Assembly: GCA_905479815.1 (NCBI GenBank)
Contig: CAJQOA010000013.1
Location: 1 to 43,573, forward strand
Direction of reading: 5' to 3'
From: an uncultured Psychroserpens sp.
Lineage (GTDB): Bacteria; Bacteroidota; Bacteroidia; Flavobacteriales; Flavobacteriaceae
Length of the DNA stretch: 43,573 bases
The position numbers and the translations under genes are program-made. How positions within the stretch are numbered: position 1 is the first letter of the stretch; every line of letters starts with the position of its first letter. The notes beneath the pieces were generated by a model. It saw nothing but the letters and a program-made list of their open reading frames with translations. It did not search any database and was not told the origin of the DNA. Shown here one piece after another: positions 21,667 to 38,573 of the stretch.

Positions 21667-23436
21667 TTGAATCTAACACTTAGATATTTACTACTCATTG
21701 CCTGTTGTTTTTCAACAGCACTCACCTACGCTCAGGAGCCTAAGAAAATCTTTATAGAATATTCTGGCTTTACCGTAAGAGACTCTTTAAAAGGAGAGAA
21801 TGTCACCACTTTTGTTCGTAGTGATCAAGGACAAATCCATATCATTCATGAAGGTATAGATATGTGGTGTGATAAAGCATTGTATTACCAAAGTGAAGAT
21901 TTTATTGAAGCATATAGTAATGTGAGAATGAAGCAAGGTGATACTATAAATATGACTTCAGATTATGTGGAGTATAGTGGTATTACCCAATTAGCAATTG
22001 CAGCTGGAAAAGTTGTTTTAACAGAACCACAATCAACACTTACAACAGATACTCTTTATTTTAATCGTGTAACACAACAAGCATATTATAATAGTAAAGG
22101 AAAAGTAGTTAGAGACTCTTCTGGAACCATTACAAGCCAGATTGGGCGTTTTTACATGAATCAAAGTAAATACCGCTTTTTAAAAGATGTCGTTTTAGTA
22201 AATCCTGAATACACCCTAGAAACAAATCAACTTGATTTTTATTCTGAAAATGGCCACGCATACATGTATGGTCCTTCTACTATCGTAGGTGAAGCTAGTA
22301 AAGTATATTCGGAGCGTGGCTTCTACGACACCAACAACGATATAGGTCATTTTATAAAAAATTCTAAAATAGATTACGATAATTTGCAAATAGAAGGTGA
22401 TAGTTTATACTTTGACAGAAATCGAAATTATGCCTCTGCAGATAATAATATTACGATTACAGATACTGTAAACAAGACGATTATTAGAGGTCATCATGGC
22501 GAAGTGTATAGAGCTAAAGATTCCTTATTTATCACAAAACGTGCTTTAGCAATTACGGTTCAAGAAAACGATTCATTATATATCCATGCAGATAAGCTAA
22601 TGGTTACTGGGAAGCCAGAAAATCGTATCACTAGAGCGTTTTATAATGCAAAGATGTATAAAAGTGATATGAGTGGTAAAGCCGACTCTATTCATGCAGA
22701 CCACAAATCTGGATTGACACAACTCATAAATCTCAAACGTTTTAATACAGGTGATGCATTTTCTATCAAAAGAAAGCCTTTAATCTGGAACTTAGGCAAC
22801 CAAATGTCTGGAGATTCTATCCATTTAATTTCTAATGTTGAAAAAGAAGAATTAGATTCTCTAAAGGTATTCAACAATGCCTTTTTAATTAGTAAAGACA
22901 CTTTAGGTGACGGTTTTAACCAAATAAAAGGTCAGAAATTAATTGGTCTTTTTAAAGACAATGAACTTTATAACGTTGATATTATTAAAAATGCAGAAAT
23001 CATTTTTTACAGTAGAGATGATAATGATTCATTAGTTGGTATAAATAAATCTAAATCTGGAAGCATCAACCTCCAGTTTGATGGTCCATATAAAATTATC
23101 ACACTAATTAATCAAGTAGATGGTGAGATTTATCCAGAATCATTATTTCCAAAGAATGCCAGACAATTTAGAGGGTTTGATTGGAGAGGTGACGAACAAC
23201 CAAAGAGTGTTAAAGATCTATTTAGTGATGACCCTCCTTTAATTCTCCCAGTAATTAAAGGATTAGAGCCTTATATTGAAGACGAAGAGTTTATTGATGA
23301 AGCACTTTTAAATCGTGTTGAGAAAGCAGGTAAAAGAGATAAAGATGAAGTTAATAAAGCTGGGCGACAACTTCCAAAACCTACTCAAAAAATAAATAGA
23401 ACATTCAATAAGCCCTTGGTTAAAAAAGGAAATTGA
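21667..23436 (+). CDS. OstA-like protein (LPS transport, LptA/LptD N-terminal type)
   Basis: The 589-residue protein has a signal peptide (LRYLLLIACCFSTALTYAQ) and then repeated OstA-like beta-jellyroll strands: IHIIHEGIDMWCDKALYYQSEDFIEAYSNV, GDTINMTSDYVEY, TLTTDTLYFNRVTQQAYYNSKGKV. These modules bind lipopolysaccharide in the LptA/LptD periplasmic bridge. The LptD barrel is absent; the C-terminus is a charged tail after PLILPVIKGLEPYI. It probably works with an Lpt system encoded elsewhere. No ATG exists upstream in frame back to a stop at 21601, and the first internal Met lies beyond the signal peptide. TTG 21667 is therefore the likely start. The stop overlaps the next gene's start in TGATG. 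Confidence 0.88.
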   Translation: MNLTLRYLLLIACCFSTALTYAQEPKKIFIEYSGFTVRDSLKGENVTTFVRSDQGQIHIIHEGIDMWCDKALYYQSEDFIEAYSNVRMKQGDTINMTSDYVEYSGITQLAIAAGKVVLTEPQSTLTTDTLYFNRVTQQAYYNSKGKVVRDSSGTITSQIGRFYMNQSKYRFLKDVVLVNPEYTLETNQLDFYSENGHAYMYGPSTIVGEASKVYSERGFYDTNNDIGHFIKNSKIDYDNLQIEGDSLYFDRNRNYASADNNITITDTVNKTIIRGHHGEVYRAKDSLFITKRALAITVQENDSLYIHADKLMVTGKPENRITRAFYNAKMYKSDMSGKADSIHADHKSGLTQLINLKRFNTGDAFSIKRKPLIWNLGNQMSGDSIHLISNVEKEELDSLKVFNNAFLISKDTLGDGFNQIKGQKLIGLFKDNELYNVDIIKNAEIIFYSRDDNDSLVGINKSKSGSINLQFDGPYKIITLINQVDGEIYPESLFPKNARQFRGFDWRGDEQPKSVKDLFSDDPPLILPVIKGLEPYIEDEEFIDEALLNRVEKAGKRDKDEVNKAGRQLPKPTQKINRTFNKPLVKKGN

Positions 23437-32775: not shown

Positions 32776-33324
32776 TTAAGAATACTCCGTTACTTTACCA
32801 ACAACACCTTTAAAAAATGCTTTCATAAAAGCAAAGTCTGCTTCTACATCATCTGTTGGATAAAAAGGTTCAGAAATAAGGTTTTGTTTATTTTTAAAAT
32901 CTAAGGTAAACATAATGATAGGCACATTTGCAGCTTTAGCAATGTAATAGAAACCTGTTCGCCACTTATCTGCTTTTTTACGGGTACCTTCTGGAGCGAG
33001 TGTTAATCTAAATTCCTCTTTGTTTTCAAATAATTTTGCGATTGCTTCTACCTTATTTTGGCCAGAAGTTCTATCTAAAGCTGCGCCACCAATAGCTCTA
33101 AAATAATAGCCTAGAGGCCATACGAATAGTTCTTTTTTACCAACAAAATTTGTTTTGACACCAGATATTTTCCGAAGAAAGAGTCCGATAAAAAAATCCT
33201 GCCAACTTGTATGAGGAACAGCGATAATCACCGCTTTTTTAACTGTATCCTGTGAAAAATTAGTATTACCTATGATTTTCCAACCTAATAATTTAAAGTA
33301 AATAATTCGAGCTAGCCATCTCAT
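32776..33324 (-). CDS. PlsC-family 1-acylglycerol-3-phosphate acyltransferase-like protein
   Basis: The 182-residue protein carries both motifs of the glycerophosphate acyltransferase superfamily: the catalytic HX4D (HTSWQD, His38 and Asp43) and EGTR (residues 112-115, in APEGTRKKADKWRTGFYYIA). The short length is typical of the compact bacterial members. It should move an acyl chain to a lysophospholipid or similar acceptor at the inner membrane. A role in lipid A or another envelope lipid is possible given the neighbours, but the acceptor is not known. It starts one base after the oxidase stop. Confidence 0.9.
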   Translation of the reverse strand: MRWLARIIYFKLLGWKIIGNTNFSQDTVKKAVIIAVPHTSWQDFFIGLFLRKISGVKTNFVGKKELFVWPLGYYFRAIGGAALDRTSGQNKVEAIAKLFENKEEFRLTLAPEGTRKKADKWRTGFYYIAKAANVPIIMFTLDFKNKQNLISEPFYPTDDVEADFAFMKAFFKGVVGKVTEYS

Positions 33325-33325
33325 A

Positions 33326-34408
33326 TTACATTTTTTGATATAAGGACTTCAACTTTTCTCTTGTTATAACTTGCTCCCAATTTTTACCAATAGCATTTTC
33401 CCATAAAGGAGTTAAACTTAAGGCAACATCAATCATGGTATCAAATTCATCATCTCCTAAATGTGCACAAATACCTTGAGGAATAGTGATGTTATGTTTT
33501 TTTCTCATGGCTTTATACATGGCTACACCTTCAGGGTAATACTCTTCTAAATGTTCAAATACAATACAGTTTCCTATACCATGTTTGACTCCTAAAAGGT
33601 AACCTAAACCGTAACTCATAGCATGCGCCACACCAACTTGAGAGTAGGCAATACTCATACCTCCATGCCAAGACGCCATCATCAATTTATCTTGTGAATC
33701 TTCTGGAGAAAGAGAGTCTTCCAGAAAAATTTCTTTACAAAGTTCCAATGCTTTTTCACCGTAACTTTGACTGAATGCGTTTAAATAAGTGCCTTCTAGA
33801 GATTCAATACAGTGTACAAAACAATCCATACCAGTATAAAACCATTGATCTTTTGGAACATCTGCTGTCAACTCTGGATCTAATATAACTTGATCAAAAG
33901 GCGTGAAATCACTATTAATACCCAATTTTCGTTCTGGACCAGTTAAAATAGTAGTTCTAGAAACTTCAGCTCCAGTACCAGATATTGTTGGTACGCCTAC
34001 ATGATAAATAGCAGGGTTTTTAACTAAAACCCAACCTTGATAATTTTTAGCTTCACCTTCATTAGTTAGCATTATTGCTACAGCTTTGGCAAGATCCAAA
34101 ACTGTACCACCTCCAATACCAATGATACCAGAAGGTCTGTCTTTATGATTTAATATAATTTGCTCTACCAGTTCATCAACCTGTGATGTTTTTGGTTCTT
34201 CCTTAGCAGATATAAATAATAATTGATCTTCATAAGCTAATGATAGTCTTGATGTTATTAAAGGATTCCCTTTAAACACATCATCAACCAAAAATATAAA
34301 TGGTGCTTTTACATTTAATCGTTTAGGAGCTATTATATCTCCTAGTTGATCAAAACTGCCTCGCCCAAATACGACTCTGGACACCATTGGATAATTTCTA
34401 TAACTCAT
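33326..34408 (-). CDS. kdnB: Iron-containing dehydrogenase, probable 3-deoxy-D-manno-octulosonate 8-oxidase
   Basis: The 360-residue enzyme belongs to the group III metal-dependent alcohol dehydrogenases. GIIGIGGGTVLDLAKAVA binds the dinucleotide, and the metal ligands fit Asp195, His199, His262 and His276 (MDCFVHCIE, HAMSYGLGY, VKHGIGN). The sequence style and the position beside kdsB suggest KdnB. In Shewanella KdnB oxidises C8 of Kdo before KdnA adds an amino group, giving 8-amino-Kdo in lipopolysaccharide. That assignment is inference from family and context; kdnA is not in the window. The start is an ATG, 46 bases after the CAT-like stop, and plsC follows after one base. Confidence 0.82.
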   Translation of the reverse strand: MSYRNYPMVSRVVFGRGSFDQLGDIIAPKRLNVKAPFIFLVDDVFKGNPLITSRLSLAYEDQLLFISAKEEPKTSQVDELVEQIILNHKDRPSGIIGIGGGTVLDLAKAVAIMLTNEGEAKNYQGWVLVKNPAIYHVGVPTISGTGAEVSRTTILTGPERKLGINSDFTPFDQVILDPELTADVPKDQWFYTGMDCFVHCIESLEGTYLNAFSQSYGEKALELCKEIFLEDSLSPEDSQDKLMMASWHGGMSIAYSQVGVAHAMSYGLGYLLGVKHGIGNCIVFEHLEEYYPEGVAMYKAMRKKHNITIPQGICAHLGDDEFDTMIDVALSLTPLWENAIGKNWEQVITREKLKSLYQKM

Positions 34409-34454
34409 TTATTCTTCTTCTTTAACAAAAATAAAAACATAGTTGGATTTATCT

Positions 34455-35075
34455 TTATTTATTTAAATAATGTTGGAATTTTTCGGCAAATAATCCAACA
34501 TGGTAACCGTCTACTAAAGCATGGTTTACGTTTATGGATACATTCATCATCATTTTTCCATCATTTTCTTTAATTATTTTACTAAAAGCAAGCTTTGGCA
34601 CAGAATCTAAAGCACCAGAAAGAGGTTCTTTATGACCAGAAAAATTAACCCAAGGCATTGCTGAGCAATGAATACATTCTAAATCATTTCGTAAAGGAAA
34701 TAATGCTCCTGTGGTTTCAATTCTATTTTTTTCTGAAATGAGATGACTCAAAAATAGGTCTAATTCATTATCAAATTCTATATATGAGAATCCAAATGTT
34801 TGATCTGAACGCATTAATGTTGCTGAAGCATTAATAGTTTCAAACTTAACAACAGTATCGTCTTGTATTCTTAGTTTTAATTCATCAATCTCATTTATCG
34901 CTTTCATACAATCATGCAAGTACTTTCCGAAGAAAGAAACATCATGTGCCTTTGCAAAATCATAAGCTTTACTCACATCAACTGGAAAAACAACTCCAAA
35001 ATAAGGATCTTTTAACGTTCTAAAATGATCGTAATGTTGCTTTCGCTTCCAAGTATTTATATCGATAATTTCCAC
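34455..35075 (-). CDS. CatA-like O-acyltransferase (chloramphenicol acetyltransferase fold)
   Basis: The 206-residue protein has the whole type A chloramphenicol acetyltransferase pattern, including the catalytic HALVDG near the end (His185, Asp189), NTWKRKQHYDHFR at the start and the trimer-interface region. The start is a GTG overlapping the preceding TAG by one base (TAGTG). No ATG is available nearby, so translation looks coupled. Because it lies inside an operon for Kdo and lipid genes, its natural substrate may be a sugar or lipid intermediate rather than chloramphenicol. Resistance should not be assumed. Many flavobacteria carry housekeeping proteins of this kind. Confidence 0.88.
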   Translation of the reverse strand: MEIIDINTWKRKQHYDHFRTLKDPYFGVVFPVDVSKAYDFAKAHDVSFFGKYLHDCMKAINEIDELKLRIQDDTVVKFETINASATLMRSDQTFGFSYIEFDNELDLFLSHLISEKNRIETTGALFPLRNDLECIHCSAMPWVNFSGHKEPLSGALDSVPKLAFSKIIKENDGKMMMNVSINVNHALVDGYHVGLFAEKFQHYLNK

Positions 35076-35779
35076 TAGTTTAACATCATTTTTAATTCTG
35101 ATAAACTTGTTATCGTTTTAAAGGCTTTATTTTTAGTATGTTGCTCATCTACTTGTTCATGCAACCAAGTGGTGTGAAACGGAATATGTATGGCTCCTGC
35201 TCCAATATTTACTAATGGTAGGATGTCTGATTTTAATGAATTTCCAATCATCAAAAATTCTGAAGGCACTATATCCAAATGATCAAGCACCTTAGAATAA
35301 TTAAGATCTTTCTTGTCACTCATGACTTCAATATGATGAAAATAAGAGATCAAATTTGACTTTTCTAACTTTCGTTCTTGGTCTAACAAATCTCCTTTTG
35401 TAAGCACAATTAATTTATAATTTTTTGATAAGGTTTTTAAAACATCCTCTACTCCATCTAATAATTCTACAGGAGCATTCAACATCTGTTTACCTATATT
35501 CAATATTTTAATAATCGTTTCATTTGATACCGAATTATTAGAAATCTCTACAGCCATTTCAACCATTGAAAGCACAAAACCCTTTACACCATAACCATAT
35601 AAAGGTAAGTTTTCAATTTCCTTTTTAAACAACTCTTGATCTATCTTATTAGCAGTCTCGTATGGCGCCATCAATTTAGCAAACTCTAATTCTGCTTCAC
35701 GAAAATAGGTCTCATTAACCCATAAAGTGTCGTCTGCATCAAAACCGATGACTTTTATATTTTTATAATTAGTATCCAA
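35075..35779 (-). CDS. HAD-family hydrolase
   Basis: The 234-residue protein has HAD motif I FDADDTLW (Asp14 nucleophile, Asp16), motif II VLTKGD, motif III lysine in SDKKDLNYSKVL and motif IV IGNSLKSDILPLVNIGAG. A helical cap follows motif I, as in the pyrimidine nucleotidase/YjjG-like class of phosphatases. The frame has no ATG; the likely start is TTG at 35777-35779, directly abutting the kdsB TAA. It could dephosphorylate Kdo-8-phosphate, which would link it to kdsB, but it is not an obvious KdsC (that family lacks a cap), so this is a weak idea. The stop overlaps the CAT-like start. Confidence 0.88.
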   Translation of the reverse strand: MDTNYKNIKVIGFDADDTLWVNETYFREAELEFAKLMAPYETANKIDQELFKKEIENLPLYGYGVKGFVLSMVEMAVEISNNSVSNETIIKILNIGKQMLNAPVELLDGVEDVLKTLSKNYKLIVLTKGDLLDQERKLEKSNLISYFHHIEVMSDKKDLNYSKVLDHLDIVPSEFLMIGNSLKSDILPLVNIGAGAIHIPFHTTWLHEQVDEQHTKNKAFKTITSLSELKMMLN

Positions 35780-36508
35780 TTATTTCCAAAGTTTTTTTGC
35801 ACGTTCTAAATCTTCAGGTGTATCAATTTCGACACCTTCAATAGTAGTTTCTACCATTTTAATTCGCTTACCGTATTCTAAATATCTAATGCATTCAATT
35901 TTCTCTGTAGCTTCAATAAACTGCATAGGCAACTTATAAAAATCTAATAAAGCTTCTTTTCTAAAGGCATAAATACCTTTGTGTTTAAAGTAGCGAGCTC
36001 CAGCTTCTTTATCTCTTGGAAACGGAATTGGACTACGAGAAAAATACAAAGCAAAATTATTTTGATCAACGATCACCTTTACTGTATTAGGATTATTGAT
36101 TTCGTCCCAATCATGTATTTCAACCATTAATGAAGCTAAATCAATGTCCTTTTTGTGATCATCTTTAAAGGCTTTAAGAACTTTCTCTAAGCTCTCCCTT
36201 TCTGTAAAAGGTTCATCTCCTTGCACATTTACAACTATATCAACATCTAAATGCTCTACTGCCTCTGCAATGCGATCACTACCCGATTGATGTTCTTTTA
36301 TACTCATGATAGCCTTACCTCCATTTGAGGTAATTTCATCAAAAATAATTTTACTGTCGGTCACAACATATACTTCATCAAATAACTGTGTTGCTATTGT
36401 AGCCTCATAAGTTCTCAAAATCACAGTCTTACCTTCTAAATCTTGCATAAGTTTAGCTGGAAAACGAGATGCACTGTAACGTGCAGGAATCATTGAAATT
36501 ATTTTCAT
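35780..36508 (-). CDS. kdsB: 3-deoxy-manno-octulosonate cytidylyltransferase
   Basis: The 242-residue enzyme activates Kdo with CTP to CMP-Kdo, the donor for the inner core of lipopolysaccharide. The nucleotide-binding start [50 protein letters not shown] (metal-binding Asp), [13 protein letters not shown] and [15 protein letters not shown] all match the family, and the end [18 protein letters not shown] is typical. The ATG lies 48 bases after the DUF4126 gene. The HAD gene begins directly at its stop. In some bacteria a related enzyme activates 8-amino-Kdo; together with kdnB downstream, that variant is worth considering. Confidence 0.96.
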
Positions 36509-36556: not shown

Positions 36557-37123
36557 TCAGGTCTTACTTCGCTTAATCTTTTTATAGAATCTAAAAACGA
36601 TATATAAAATAACCAAAACGAATATAAATGCTAAAACAGGTTGAATGAAAGCTATAATTGTTATCAATATAGAACTCCCTGTTTCTAAAGTAGAAATTAC
36701 AGGATTGCCAAGACCTCCTGTAGTTGCTGTAGATGCTAAACGCGTAACACCAGAACTTCCAGCCACTGCAGCAGCTGTTCCTCCTCCAGCAATAATTGCT
36801 AGAGCCCAAGTTATTGCTGGACTTAAATCTGCAACTGTAGAGACCATAACAGCAGTTCCTGCAATTGTAGCTAGTGGAATTGCAATAGAATCTAATAGAT
36901 TATCTACATAAGGTATATAGTAACCAAATATTTCAACTAAAGTAGCGACGCCTAAAGTAACCACTGCAACTAAACTTCCAATCCATTGCCAAGACTCATT
37001 AAGCTCCCATAAATCAAAATAAGCTGCTAGGCTTAATGCAAATAAGGGAACGAATACTCGAAAACCAACTGATGCTGATAAACCAATACCTAGAAATATA
37101 CTGATGATAGTGTCTGTTGTCAT
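36557..37123 (-). CDS. DUF4126 membrane protein
   Basis: The 188-residue protein has about six hydrophobic segments rich in small residues (LGIGLSASVGFRVFVPLFAL, AGGGTAAAVAGSSGVTRLAST). The pattern GLSASVGFRVFVPL at the start, PYVDNLLD in the middle and the GGGTAA loop fit the DUF4126 family of inner-membrane proteins of unknown role. The end is basic (RFYKKIKRSKT). It lies 22 bases after the helicase gene and 48 bases before kdsB on the same strand, so it is probably part of the same message. Confidence 0.85.
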   Translation of the reverse strand: MTTDTIISIFLGIGLSASVGFRVFVPLFALSLAAYFDLWELNESWQWIGSLVAVVTLGVATLVEIFGYYIPYVDNLLDSIAIPLATIAGTAVMVSTVADLSPAITWALAIIAGGGTAAAVAGSSGVTRLASTATTGGLGNPVISTLETGSSILITIIAFIQPVLAFIFVLVILYIVFRFYKKIKRSKT

Positions 37124-37145
37124 TATTTTTTCATTTAATTACAAA

Positions 37146-38573
37146 TCAATCGTCTTCAAAAAACTCATCTTTGAAACCAATAAGATACAATTTTTCTTTA
37201 GCTCTAGTAGCAGCAGTATACAACCACCTCATATAATCTTTATCAATACCATTTGGCAAATAAGGCTGCTCAACAAAAATGGTATTCCATTGTCCACCTT
37301 GTGATTTATGACACGTAATCGCATAAGAAAATTTCACTTGCAAAGCGTTGAAGTGCTTATTACCTTTAATTTTTAGAAATTTTTTATAGTTAGATGTTTC
37401 GTCTTCGTAATCCTTTTGAACCTCTTGGTATAAACGATTGCTATCTTCATAGGTAAGTGATGGTGTCTCTGCTTCTATCGTATCTAATAACAATACTGTT
37501 TCAAAAGGCTGCATTTTGGGATAATCAACCATTTGAACTTTTACTTCCGCGAAGCGAAAATCATACAAAGTTGTAATTGAGAAAATCTCTAAAACTTGAA
37601 TAATATCACCATTGGCTATGAAGCCTGCTTCTGTTGTTGGCTTAACCCAATAATAATTATTTTTCACAACCATTAAAAAGTCTCCAACAGTAAGTTCGTT
37701 TTCATTAAATAGTATTCGGTTTCTTATTTGCTGATTATAAAGATTGGCGCGTTTATTACTTCTTACAATAATAGCAGTGTCTTCATGACCATTTGCACCA
37801 TAAGAATCATTAATAGCATCCATCACTTCATGACCATCAATAAGTCTTACGATATCATCAAACCCGTTGAGATTAAATGTAAAGGACTCATAAAAATCAT
37901 TTTCTATAACGTCTCTAATTCTTGTCGCATTGCTTAGAATTCCTGAATCTTGATTTTGCCTTACGACTTCATCAAGTTCAATACTCGTTACGTTTTTGTC
38001 ATAATTTAATTCTAACAGTCTTTGATCCAAGGCTGGTGACAAATCAGATTTCACTGGAGGCAACTGTGCTTTATCTCCAATGAGTAATAATTTACAGTTA
38101 TGACCAGAATACACATAGCGCATCAAATCTTCTAATAAGGATGTGCTTTCAACATTTTTATAATCTGATGGTACATCTGGAATCATAGATGCTTCATCAA
38201 CCATAAATATTGTATCGCGATGTTTGTTGGGTTGCAACACAAATTTCACTCCGCCTCCTTTATCTTTCTTCGGAAAATAAATCTTTTTATGAATTGTAAA
38301 GGCTTCCTTTTTAGAGTAATTAGAGATTACTTTTGCAGCTCTTCCTGTTGGAGCCAACAAAACAGCACTTTTTTTAGTGTGCCATAAATTAGATACAAGT
38401 GTACCCGTTATACTAGTTTTTCCTGTACCTGCAAACCCCTTTAAAAGGTATAGCGCATTAGAAGAATCATCAAAAACGAAGTTTGATAATTGCTCTAAAG
38501 CAATGGTTTGCTTTAAAGTAGGCTTAAATGGAAACTTTTGAATAAGTAGTTTATAAAAATCTGATGCGGTCAT
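37146..38573 (-). CDS. RecD-like superfamily 1 DNA helicase
   Basis: The 475-residue ATPase has Walker A LLKGFAGTGKTS (GxxGxGKT near residues 46-53), motif Ia LLAPTGRAAKVI, Walker B FMVDEASMI, motif III LLLIGDKAQLPPV, and the C-terminal motifs AITCHKSQGGQWNTIFVEQ and LYTAATRAKEKLYLIG. This is a compact RecD2/Pif1-type helicase of superfamily 1B, expected to move 5' to 3'. It lacks the long N-terminal region of RecD2 and has no RecB/RecC partner nearby. It probably acts in repair or replication restart. It is the first gene of the minus-strand run that continues to kdsB. Confidence 0.93.
   Translation of the reverse strand: MTASDFYKLLIQKFPFKPTLKQTIALEQLSNFVFDDSSNALYLLKGFAGTGKTSITGTLVSNLWHTKKSAVLLAPTGRAAKVISNYSKKEAFTIHKKIYFPKKDKGGGVKFVLQPNKHRDTIFMVDEASMIPDVPSDYKNVESTSLLEDLMRYVYSGHNCKLLLIGDKAQLPPVKSDLSPALDQRLLELNYDKNVTSIELDEVVRQNQDSGILSNATRIRDVIENDFYESFTFNLNGFDDIVRLIDGHEVMDAINDSYGANGHEDTAIIVRSNKRANLYNQQIRNRILFNENELTVGDFLMVVKNNYYWVKPTTEAGFIANGDIIQVLEIFSITTLYDFRFAEVKVQMVDYPKMQPFETVLLLDTIEAETPSLTYEDSNRLYQEVQKDYEDETSNYKKFLKIKGNKHFNALQVKFSYAITCHKSQGGQWNTIFVEQPYLPNGIDKDYMRWLYTAATRAKEKLYLIGFKDEFFEDD

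What the first reader, a model, noticed from the sequence alone, without database searches (positions are those of the whole stretch)
33326..36508. kdsB operon with a putative Kdo 8-oxidase: possible 8-amino-Kdo lipopolysaccharide
A KdnB-like iron dehydrogenase lies two genes after kdsB in the same minus-strand run. In Shewanella KdnB and KdnA turn Kdo into 8-amino-Kdo, which alters the inner core. No kdnA is in the window, so the aminotransferase must be elsewhere if the pathway is complete. The class III aminotransferase at 23436 is not of the KdnA type by motif.
Basis: partly seen in the sequence, partly recalled or inferred. Interest (0 to 1): 0.5.

Follow-up and report, generated by a model that had tools for sequence, protein, structure and literature searches.

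The report
Amino-Kdo sugar pathway in marine flavobacteria
This flavobacterium carries both enzymes known from Shewanella for putting an amino group on Kdo, the sugar that anchors lipopolysaccharide, so a chemistry reported as a Shewanella hallmark is probably widespread in a family of a second phylum, although no sugar has been measured.

Summary
Window 33326-34408 (-) encodes a KdnB-type Kdo 8-oxidase: 54% identical to solved KdnB 5k8c (456 bits; near-twin 3rf7 455; next 93), in one clade with it, metal ligands intact. It is the third gene after kdsB. The missing partner exists: a KdnA orthologue (52% identity, 472 bits to KdnA 5k8b, next 178) lies on contig C60 beside ribBA. In 60 genomes of the family both occur in 38, KdnA alone in 1 (82% complete), neither in 21. 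In all 38, kdnB lies 28-1420 bases downstream of kdsB; in 5 the two are fused. In G177, which has kdnB but no KdnA, two of four KdnB metal ligands are lost. Unexpected: KdsB residue 227, two before the catalytic Mg-binding Asp, is Glu in 50 of 53 KdsB proteins read from kdn+ genomes and 3 of 87 from kdn- genomes, a candidate selectivity switch for 8-amino-Kdo; the tree-controlled test is too small (3 of 5 pairs agree, 0 oppose, p 0.25). HAD and CatA-like genes persist without kdnB and are probably bystanders. Best reading: 8-amino-Kdo replaces Kdo in the inner core. A known pathway in a new phylum; chemistry untested.

The parts
33326..34408 (-). kdnB: predicted Kdo 8-oxidase (group III alcohol dehydrogenase), 360 aa; metal-ligand columns D195, H199, H262, H276
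   Evidence: 5k8c 456 bits, 3rf7 455, next 93; 54% identity to 5k8c; ligand columns shared with E. coli FucO; ligand identity recalled; clade with 5k8c
35780..36508 (-). kdsB: CMP-Kdo, predicted CMP-Kdo8N, synthetase, 242 aa
   Evidence: TIGR00466 192 bits, above cut-off; solved KdsB enzymes
35828..35830 (-). codon of KdsB Glu227, two residues before D229 (taken as the equivalent of Mg-A ligand D219 of Aquifex KdsB by motif); candidate Kdo8N selectivity residue
   Evidence: Glu in kdn+, mostly Gly in kdn- genomes; PMC3149649 on D219; Gly in aligned solved KdsB
35075..35779 (-). HAD-family hydrolase between kdsB and kdnB; conserved neighbour, probably not a pathway step
   Evidence: PF00702; not seen in the five fusion loci; kept in kdn- G021, G059, G002
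34455..35075 (-). CatA-like acyltransferase; optional neighbour
   Evidence: (PF00302), below NCBIfam cut-offs; 29 of 80 named loci; kept in kdn- G021, 43% identity
32776..33324 (-). PlsC-type acyltransferase, next gene of the run; conserved neighbour
   Evidence: PF01553; 74 of 80 named loci

Best explanation
[quoted passage not shown] KdnB (window 33326-34408) oxidises C8 of free Kdo; KdnA (contig C60) transaminates the product; KdsB (35780-36508) activates it as CMP-Kdo8N; a WaaA-type transferase (contig C198) attaches it to lipid A. Shown here: homology, conserved ligands, co-occurrence, linkage and fusion. Inferred by orthology with Shewanella: substrate, product and order of steps. Glu227 of KdsB is proposed, at lower confidence (about 0.4), to pair with the 8-ammonium group.
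For: KdnB. KdnA. Kdo supply and use: KdsA on C3 over its cut-off (370 bits), WaaA by Pfam domain (below NCBIfam cut-offs). In 60 genomes of the family (59 genera; E 1e-60 for KdnB, 1e-80 for KdnA): both in 38, KdnA alone in 1 (G048, 82% complete, no kdsB found either), neither in 21. In 296 genomes of the phylum: KdnB 22, KdnA 19, all 19 within the 22. Of the 3 KdnB-only genomes, G203 and G227 have a KdnA relative at 39% identity below my threshold (277-280 bits to 5k8b); G177 has none closer than a 35% generic match, and its KdnB alone of 57 has lost metal ligands, DQRH for DHHH. kdnB is downstream of kdsB on the same strand in 38 of 38 and in 79 of 80 named kdnB contigs, the 80th showing no kdsB. 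Five genomes encode KdsB-KdnB as one protein of 609-612 aa without a stop. kdnA-kdsB-kdnB are contiguous in G025 and G253. G021 and G059 keep the neighbourhood but lack kdnB and kdnA. KdsB Glu227.
Against: No chemical or enzymatic data. Counts are over related genomes. kdnA is not linked to kdnB in this genome. Outside the family the kdsB link is looser: of 10 such genomes with KdnA and KdnB, a KdsB relative is in view in 6 (G174, G253 next to kdnB; G306 1.9 kb, G208 2.8 kb, G310 3.1 kb and G150 3.9 kb away) and not in view in 4 (G092, G185, G204, G247). KdsB of G150 and G306 (33-34% identity) lacks Glu227; KdsB of G204 and G247 was not read. Tree-controlled test: 5 independent supported pairs, 3 agree, 0 oppose, 2 do not differ, p 0.25. 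G021, G218 and G345 have Glu227 without kdn genes. The LOS backbone of Arenibacter certesii was published in 2005 (reference seen; not held); Arenibacter amylolyticus has this locus (L188). If A. certesii has kdnAB and its LOS has plain Kdo, that counts against.
Confidence: 0.8

Rival explanations
1. KdnB and KdnA act together, but on another sugar acid (for instance a nonulosonic acid of a surface polysaccharide), and the kdsB linkage is incidental.
For: In G203 a 40% KdnB relative sits in a polysaccharide cluster beside ORFs that I read by eye as NeuB-like and SpsF-like; a Leptospira table lists kdnB near neuA genes (PMC8510873 passage). Outside the family the kdsB link is loose or not in view.
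Against: In the window's family kdnB is next to kdsB in 38 of 38 and fused to it in 5. Across the other kdn+ genomes of the 60, KdnB is 68-89% and KdnA 64-85% identical to the window genome's, and they are 54% and 52% identical to the solved Shewanella enzymes of known substrate.
Confidence: 0.1
2. The pathway makes an N-acylated Kdo8N, with the CatA-like protein of the run adding the acyl group.
For: The CatA-like gene lies between HAD and kdnB here and in 29 of 80 named loci.
Against: It is absent from 51 of 80 named loci and a 43% relative is kept in kdn- G021.
Confidence: 0.07
3. KdnB is a general alcohol dehydrogenase that happens to lie near kdsB.
For: It belongs to PF00465, a broad family.
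Against: Score gap of 455 to 93 bits, clade with 5k8c, co-occurrence with KdnA, fusion to KdsB.
Confidence: 0.03

Closest known systems
Shewanella oneidensis Kdo8N pathway, KdnB (5k8c), KdnA (5k8b), KdsB (organism of the PDB entries recalled)
   Same: Orthologous oxidase and aminotransferase and association with kdsB; kdnA, kdsB and kdnB together in G025 and G253, as in Shewanella (Shewanella gene order recalled).
   Different: Another phylum; kdnA on a different contig from kdsB-kdnB in this genome; HAD and CatA-like genes intervene; KdsB-KdnB fused in 5 of 38 family genomes. Shewanella KdsB could not be obtained, so residue 227 was not compared.
Canonical KdsB (1vh1 and 3k8d E. coli, 1gq9 K5 capsule, 3duv H. 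influenzae; organisms recalled)
   Same: KdsB family and the catalytic Asp of the (I/V)DTPEDL motif.
   Different: Glu two residues before that Asp in kdn+ genomes, Gly in the aligned solved enzymes printed (five chains; Aquifex 2y6p was not printed).

Membership tests
KdnB (Kdo 8-oxidase; FeADH3/cd08184 in a passage of PMC5125639) | Groups with solved KdnB and not with other group III alcohol dehydrogenases | tested here: met
KdnB (Kdo 8-oxidase; FeADH3/cd08184 in a passage of PMC5125639) | Metal ligands Asp/His/His/His | tested here: met
   D195, H199, H262, H276, same columns as E. coli FucO (that these are the ligands is recalled)
KdnB (Kdo 8-oxidase; FeADH3/cd08184 in a passage of PMC5125639) | Oxidises Kdo at C8 | not testable with these tools
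   needs an enzyme assay
KdnA (Kdo8N transaminase) | DegT-family protein closest to solved KdnA, PLP lysine column kept | tested here: met
   (K186 of 5k8b; its role recalled)
Kdo8N pathway | KdnA, KdnB, KdsB, KdsA and WaaA in one genome | tested here: met
   (WaaA by Pfam domain, below NCBIfam cut-offs)
Kdo8N pathway | kdnA, kdnB and kdsB in one cluster, as in Shewanella (not a strict requirement) | tested here: not met
   kdnA on C60, kdnB and kdsB on C13; the three cluster in relatives G025 and G253
Kdo8N pathway | Kdo8N present in LPS | not testable with these tools
   no chemical data

The most novel reading that the evidence does not exclude
Kdo8N is a common inner-core sugar of marine Flavobacteriaceae, and KdsB carries a one-residue Gly-to-Glu selectivity switch (residue 227) that was gained with kdnAB and reversed in most lineages that lost them, so that Kdo8N status can be read from kdsB alone; KdsB-KdnB fusions couple the first and last soluble steps.
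Probability: 0.35. Interest if true: 0.72.

Novelty: new member of a known kind. Interest (0 to 1): 0.5.

Why it matters
Kdo is the near-universal link between lipid A and the core. Kdo8N changes its charge. It was called a hallmark of Shewanella in 2019 (PMC6357163 passage) and set apart from all LPS structures then known in 2011 (PMC3210612 passage). Predicting it for 38 of 60 genomes of a family sampled almost one per genus (10 of 30 family members have KdnB, 9 also KdnA, in the species-weighted phylum draw) makes LPS charge and envelope stability in these bacteria testable, and gives one residue to test for substrate choice in KdsB.

Tried and rejected
Considered and rejected: general alcohol dehydrogenase; the window's class III aminotransferase as the transaminase; HAD and CatA-like genes as pathway steps. 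Led nowhere: no KdnB on plasmids at E 1e-40; none in viral contigs; no Shewanella KdsB sequence obtained. The primary Kdo8N papers and the Arenibacter LOS paper are not held. Paper searches listed no paper that I recognised as placing kdnA/kdnB or Kdo8N in Bacteroidota; two showed 20 of 45 and 20 of 56 papers, listings only, and the library lacks most subscription journals. A beta-strand argument for the direction of Glu227 was dropped: the AlphaFold2 model (mean pLDDT 81) puts residues 221-230 in a loop; no distances were measured. A motif search for the KdnA lysine failed on most rows through my own pattern; the alignment shows the lysine in 12 of 12 rows.

Rows and limits behind the counts: the tree test left out three second KdsB copies (G049b, G033b, G004b); one search dropped three duplicates. 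KdsB of kdn+ G204 and G247 and of G203 and G227 was not read. G177 is counted as kdn-. The first KdsB set held 32 of 38 kdn+ and 16 of 21 kdn- family genomes plus G177; the rest were added. The kdn- rows from the phylum are mostly from the upper part of the ranked list (220 of 296 genomes with a match), not a random draw.
Full report
Observation. The minus-strand run is real: kdsB 35780-36508, HAD hydrolase 35075-35779, CatA-like 34455-35075, Fe-ADH 33326-34408, PlsC-type acyltransferase 32776-33324 (families). kdnB is the third gene after kdsB. The window is contig C13 of a 3.3 Mb draft, 88.7% complete. Its nearest named KdnB relatives are Arcticiflavibacter and Psychroserpens (89-95% identity), so I call the window's coded family Flavobacteriaceae; that the genera are mostly marine is recalled.

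The oxidase is a KdnB. Against solved structures the best hits are KdnB 5k8c (456 bits) and 3rf7 (455 bits, deposited as iron-containing alcohol dehydrogenase); the third has 93 bits. Identity to 5k8c is 54%. In a tree of 72 proteins all 57 homologues found, with 5k8c, form one side of a branch with support 100 against 14 other Fe-ADHs, including E. coli FucO, YiaY and EutG (quick method, long outgroup branches flagged). The metal-ligand columns read DHHH in 56 of the 57 and in 5k8c.

The missing KdnA exists. PF01041 gives 10 matches in the genome, 5 of them long, none on C13. One, L005:1342-2535 (-) = G000:C60:19123-20313, beside ribBA (named by eye), scores 472 bits against KdnA 5k8b, the next PDB entry 178. 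It shares 201 of 388 aligned residues and the PLP lysine column. Reversed, 5k8b scores it 471 bits and the other four 88-122. KdsA is present above cut-off, and a Kdo transferase by Pfam domain (below NCBIfam cut-offs).

Linked fate. In 60 genomes of the family (59 genera) KdnB is found in 38 and KdnA in 39, both in the same 38. The exception, G048, is 82% complete and shows no KdsB either. Naive Fisher p is 2.8e-15, uncorrected for relatedness. In 296 genomes of the phylum KdnB is in 22 and KdnA in 19, all within the 22; in that draw 10 of 30 family members have KdnB, and genus g60 has none in 17. Of the three KdnB-only genomes, G203 and G227 have a KdnA relative at 39% identity, 277-280 bits to 5k8b, under my threshold. 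The third, G177, has only generic 29-35% matches; its KdnB stays in place between HAD and plsC, sits on a long branch and has lost two of four metal ligands (DQRH), which is what decay of an orphaned enzyme would look like.

Linkage and fusion. kdnB lies 28-1420 bases downstream of kdsB on the same strand in 38 of 38 family genomes. In 80 named contigs the orders are kdsB-HAD-kdnB-plsC 45, the same with CatA-like 28, without plsC 6, and one without kdsB in view. Five genomes (G012, G027, G039, G042, G054) encode KdsB and KdnB as one protein of 609-612 aa with both domain sets and no stop; they form one subclade in the KdnB and in the KdsB tree, so probably one event. kdnA, kdsB and kdnB are contiguous in G025 and G253. 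G021 and G059 keep the neighbourhood but lack kdnB and kdnA. HAD genes survive in both and a CatA-like gene in G021, so I do not count them as pathway parts. Outside the family the kdsB link is looser: of 10 genomes with KdnA and KdnB a KdsB relative is in view in 6, 0 to 3.9 kb from kdnB, and not in view in 4.

An unexpected residue. Scanning KdsB columns for differences between kdn+ and kdn- genomes, position 227 stood out. It lies two residues before Asp229 of the IDTPEDL motif, which I take as the equivalent of Aquifex D219, a ligand of catalytic Mg-A (PMC3149649; abstract and section 4 read). In the first set Glu is in 32 of 32 kdn+ and 1 of 17 kdn- proteins. Extended to 140 proteins: Glu in 50 of 53 from kdn+ genomes and 3 of 87 from kdn- genomes, where Gly (54) and Ala (17) lead; it is the best separating column, 0.91 against 0.70 for the next. 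All 38 kdn+ family genomes have Glu in their main KdsB. Among the five genomes without a working kdn pair that lie inside the kdn+ part of the KdsB tree, G059, G016, G041 and the decayed G177 have Gly and G021 keeps Glu. The five solved KdsB chains aligned have Gly.

Limits of that result. The column was found by search and then extended; the first set is inside the second. With the site removed from the tree there are 9 kdn changes, 8 Glu changes and 5 independent supported pairs: 3 agree, 0 oppose, 2 do not differ, p = 0.25. Kdn+ exceptions are G150 and G306, whose KdsB is 33-34% identical to this one, and a second copy in G049; kdn- exceptions are G021, G218 (no KdnB down to 1e-8) and G345 (only a 30% Fe-ADH). 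Shewanella KdsB could not be read. AlphaFold2 puts 221-230 in a loop.

Mechanism. By orthology with Shewanella: Kdo to 8-oxo-Kdo (KdnB), to Kdo8N (KdnA), to CMP-Kdo8N (KdsB), to lipid A (WaaA). The Shewanella biochemistry (Gattis 2013; a structure paper with NAD and zinc in KdnB) is recalled; the Gattis paper is not held and the structure paper was not found by one search. PMC5125639 (passage) names KdnB of S. oneidensis as the Kdo 8-oxidase that starts Kdo8N synthesis.

Literature. A 2011 review sets Kdo8N of Shewanella against all LPS structures then known (PMC3210612 passages), and a 2019 paper calls it a hallmark of Shewanella (PMC6357163 passages). A 2014 review says in its Shewanella section that Kdo8N has been confirmed in 'other bacterial species' (PMC4052302 passage); one of the three references is on S. 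pacifica, the other two I did not trace, so this may or may not mean other genera. The searches named in Tried and rejected listed no paper placing it in Bacteroidota. A Bizionia LPS study (PMC9478572 passages) treats the sugar as Kdo and holds no '8-amino'. The gene name kdnB is already used outside Shewanella, for instance in a Leptospira table (PMC8510873 passage), so the annotation itself is not new.

Verdict. A complete, conserved Kdo8N pathway in this family is the best reading (0.8). It is a known pathway in a new phylum; the KdsB Glu227 signature is the part that a specialist is least likely to expect.

Noticed in passing
L080:3111-7677 and L081 (G203, G227): A 40% KdnB relative sits in a surface-polysaccharide cluster with ORFs read by eye in L080 as NeuB-like, SpsF-like and PseG-like; a 39% KdnA relative is elsewhere in both genomes. 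It may modify a nonulosonic acid rather than Kdo.
   Followed up: partly
L079:6643-7722 (G177): KdnB in its native position with two metal ligands lost, in a genome without KdnA.
   Followed up: yes
L083-L086 (G247, G204, G150, G306): kdnA and kdnB adjacent or one ORF apart; KdsB relatives 1.9-3.9 kb away in two (G306, G150), both without Glu227, and not in view in the other two.
   Followed up: partly
window 36557-38573: A DUF4126 gene and a helicase-like gene (named by eye) upstream of kdsB recur in many family loci, with or without kdnB.
   Followed up: no
L079:2110-3447: Three near-identical 115-codon minus-strand ORFs at 495-base spacing, suggesting a tandem repeat region.
   Followed up: no
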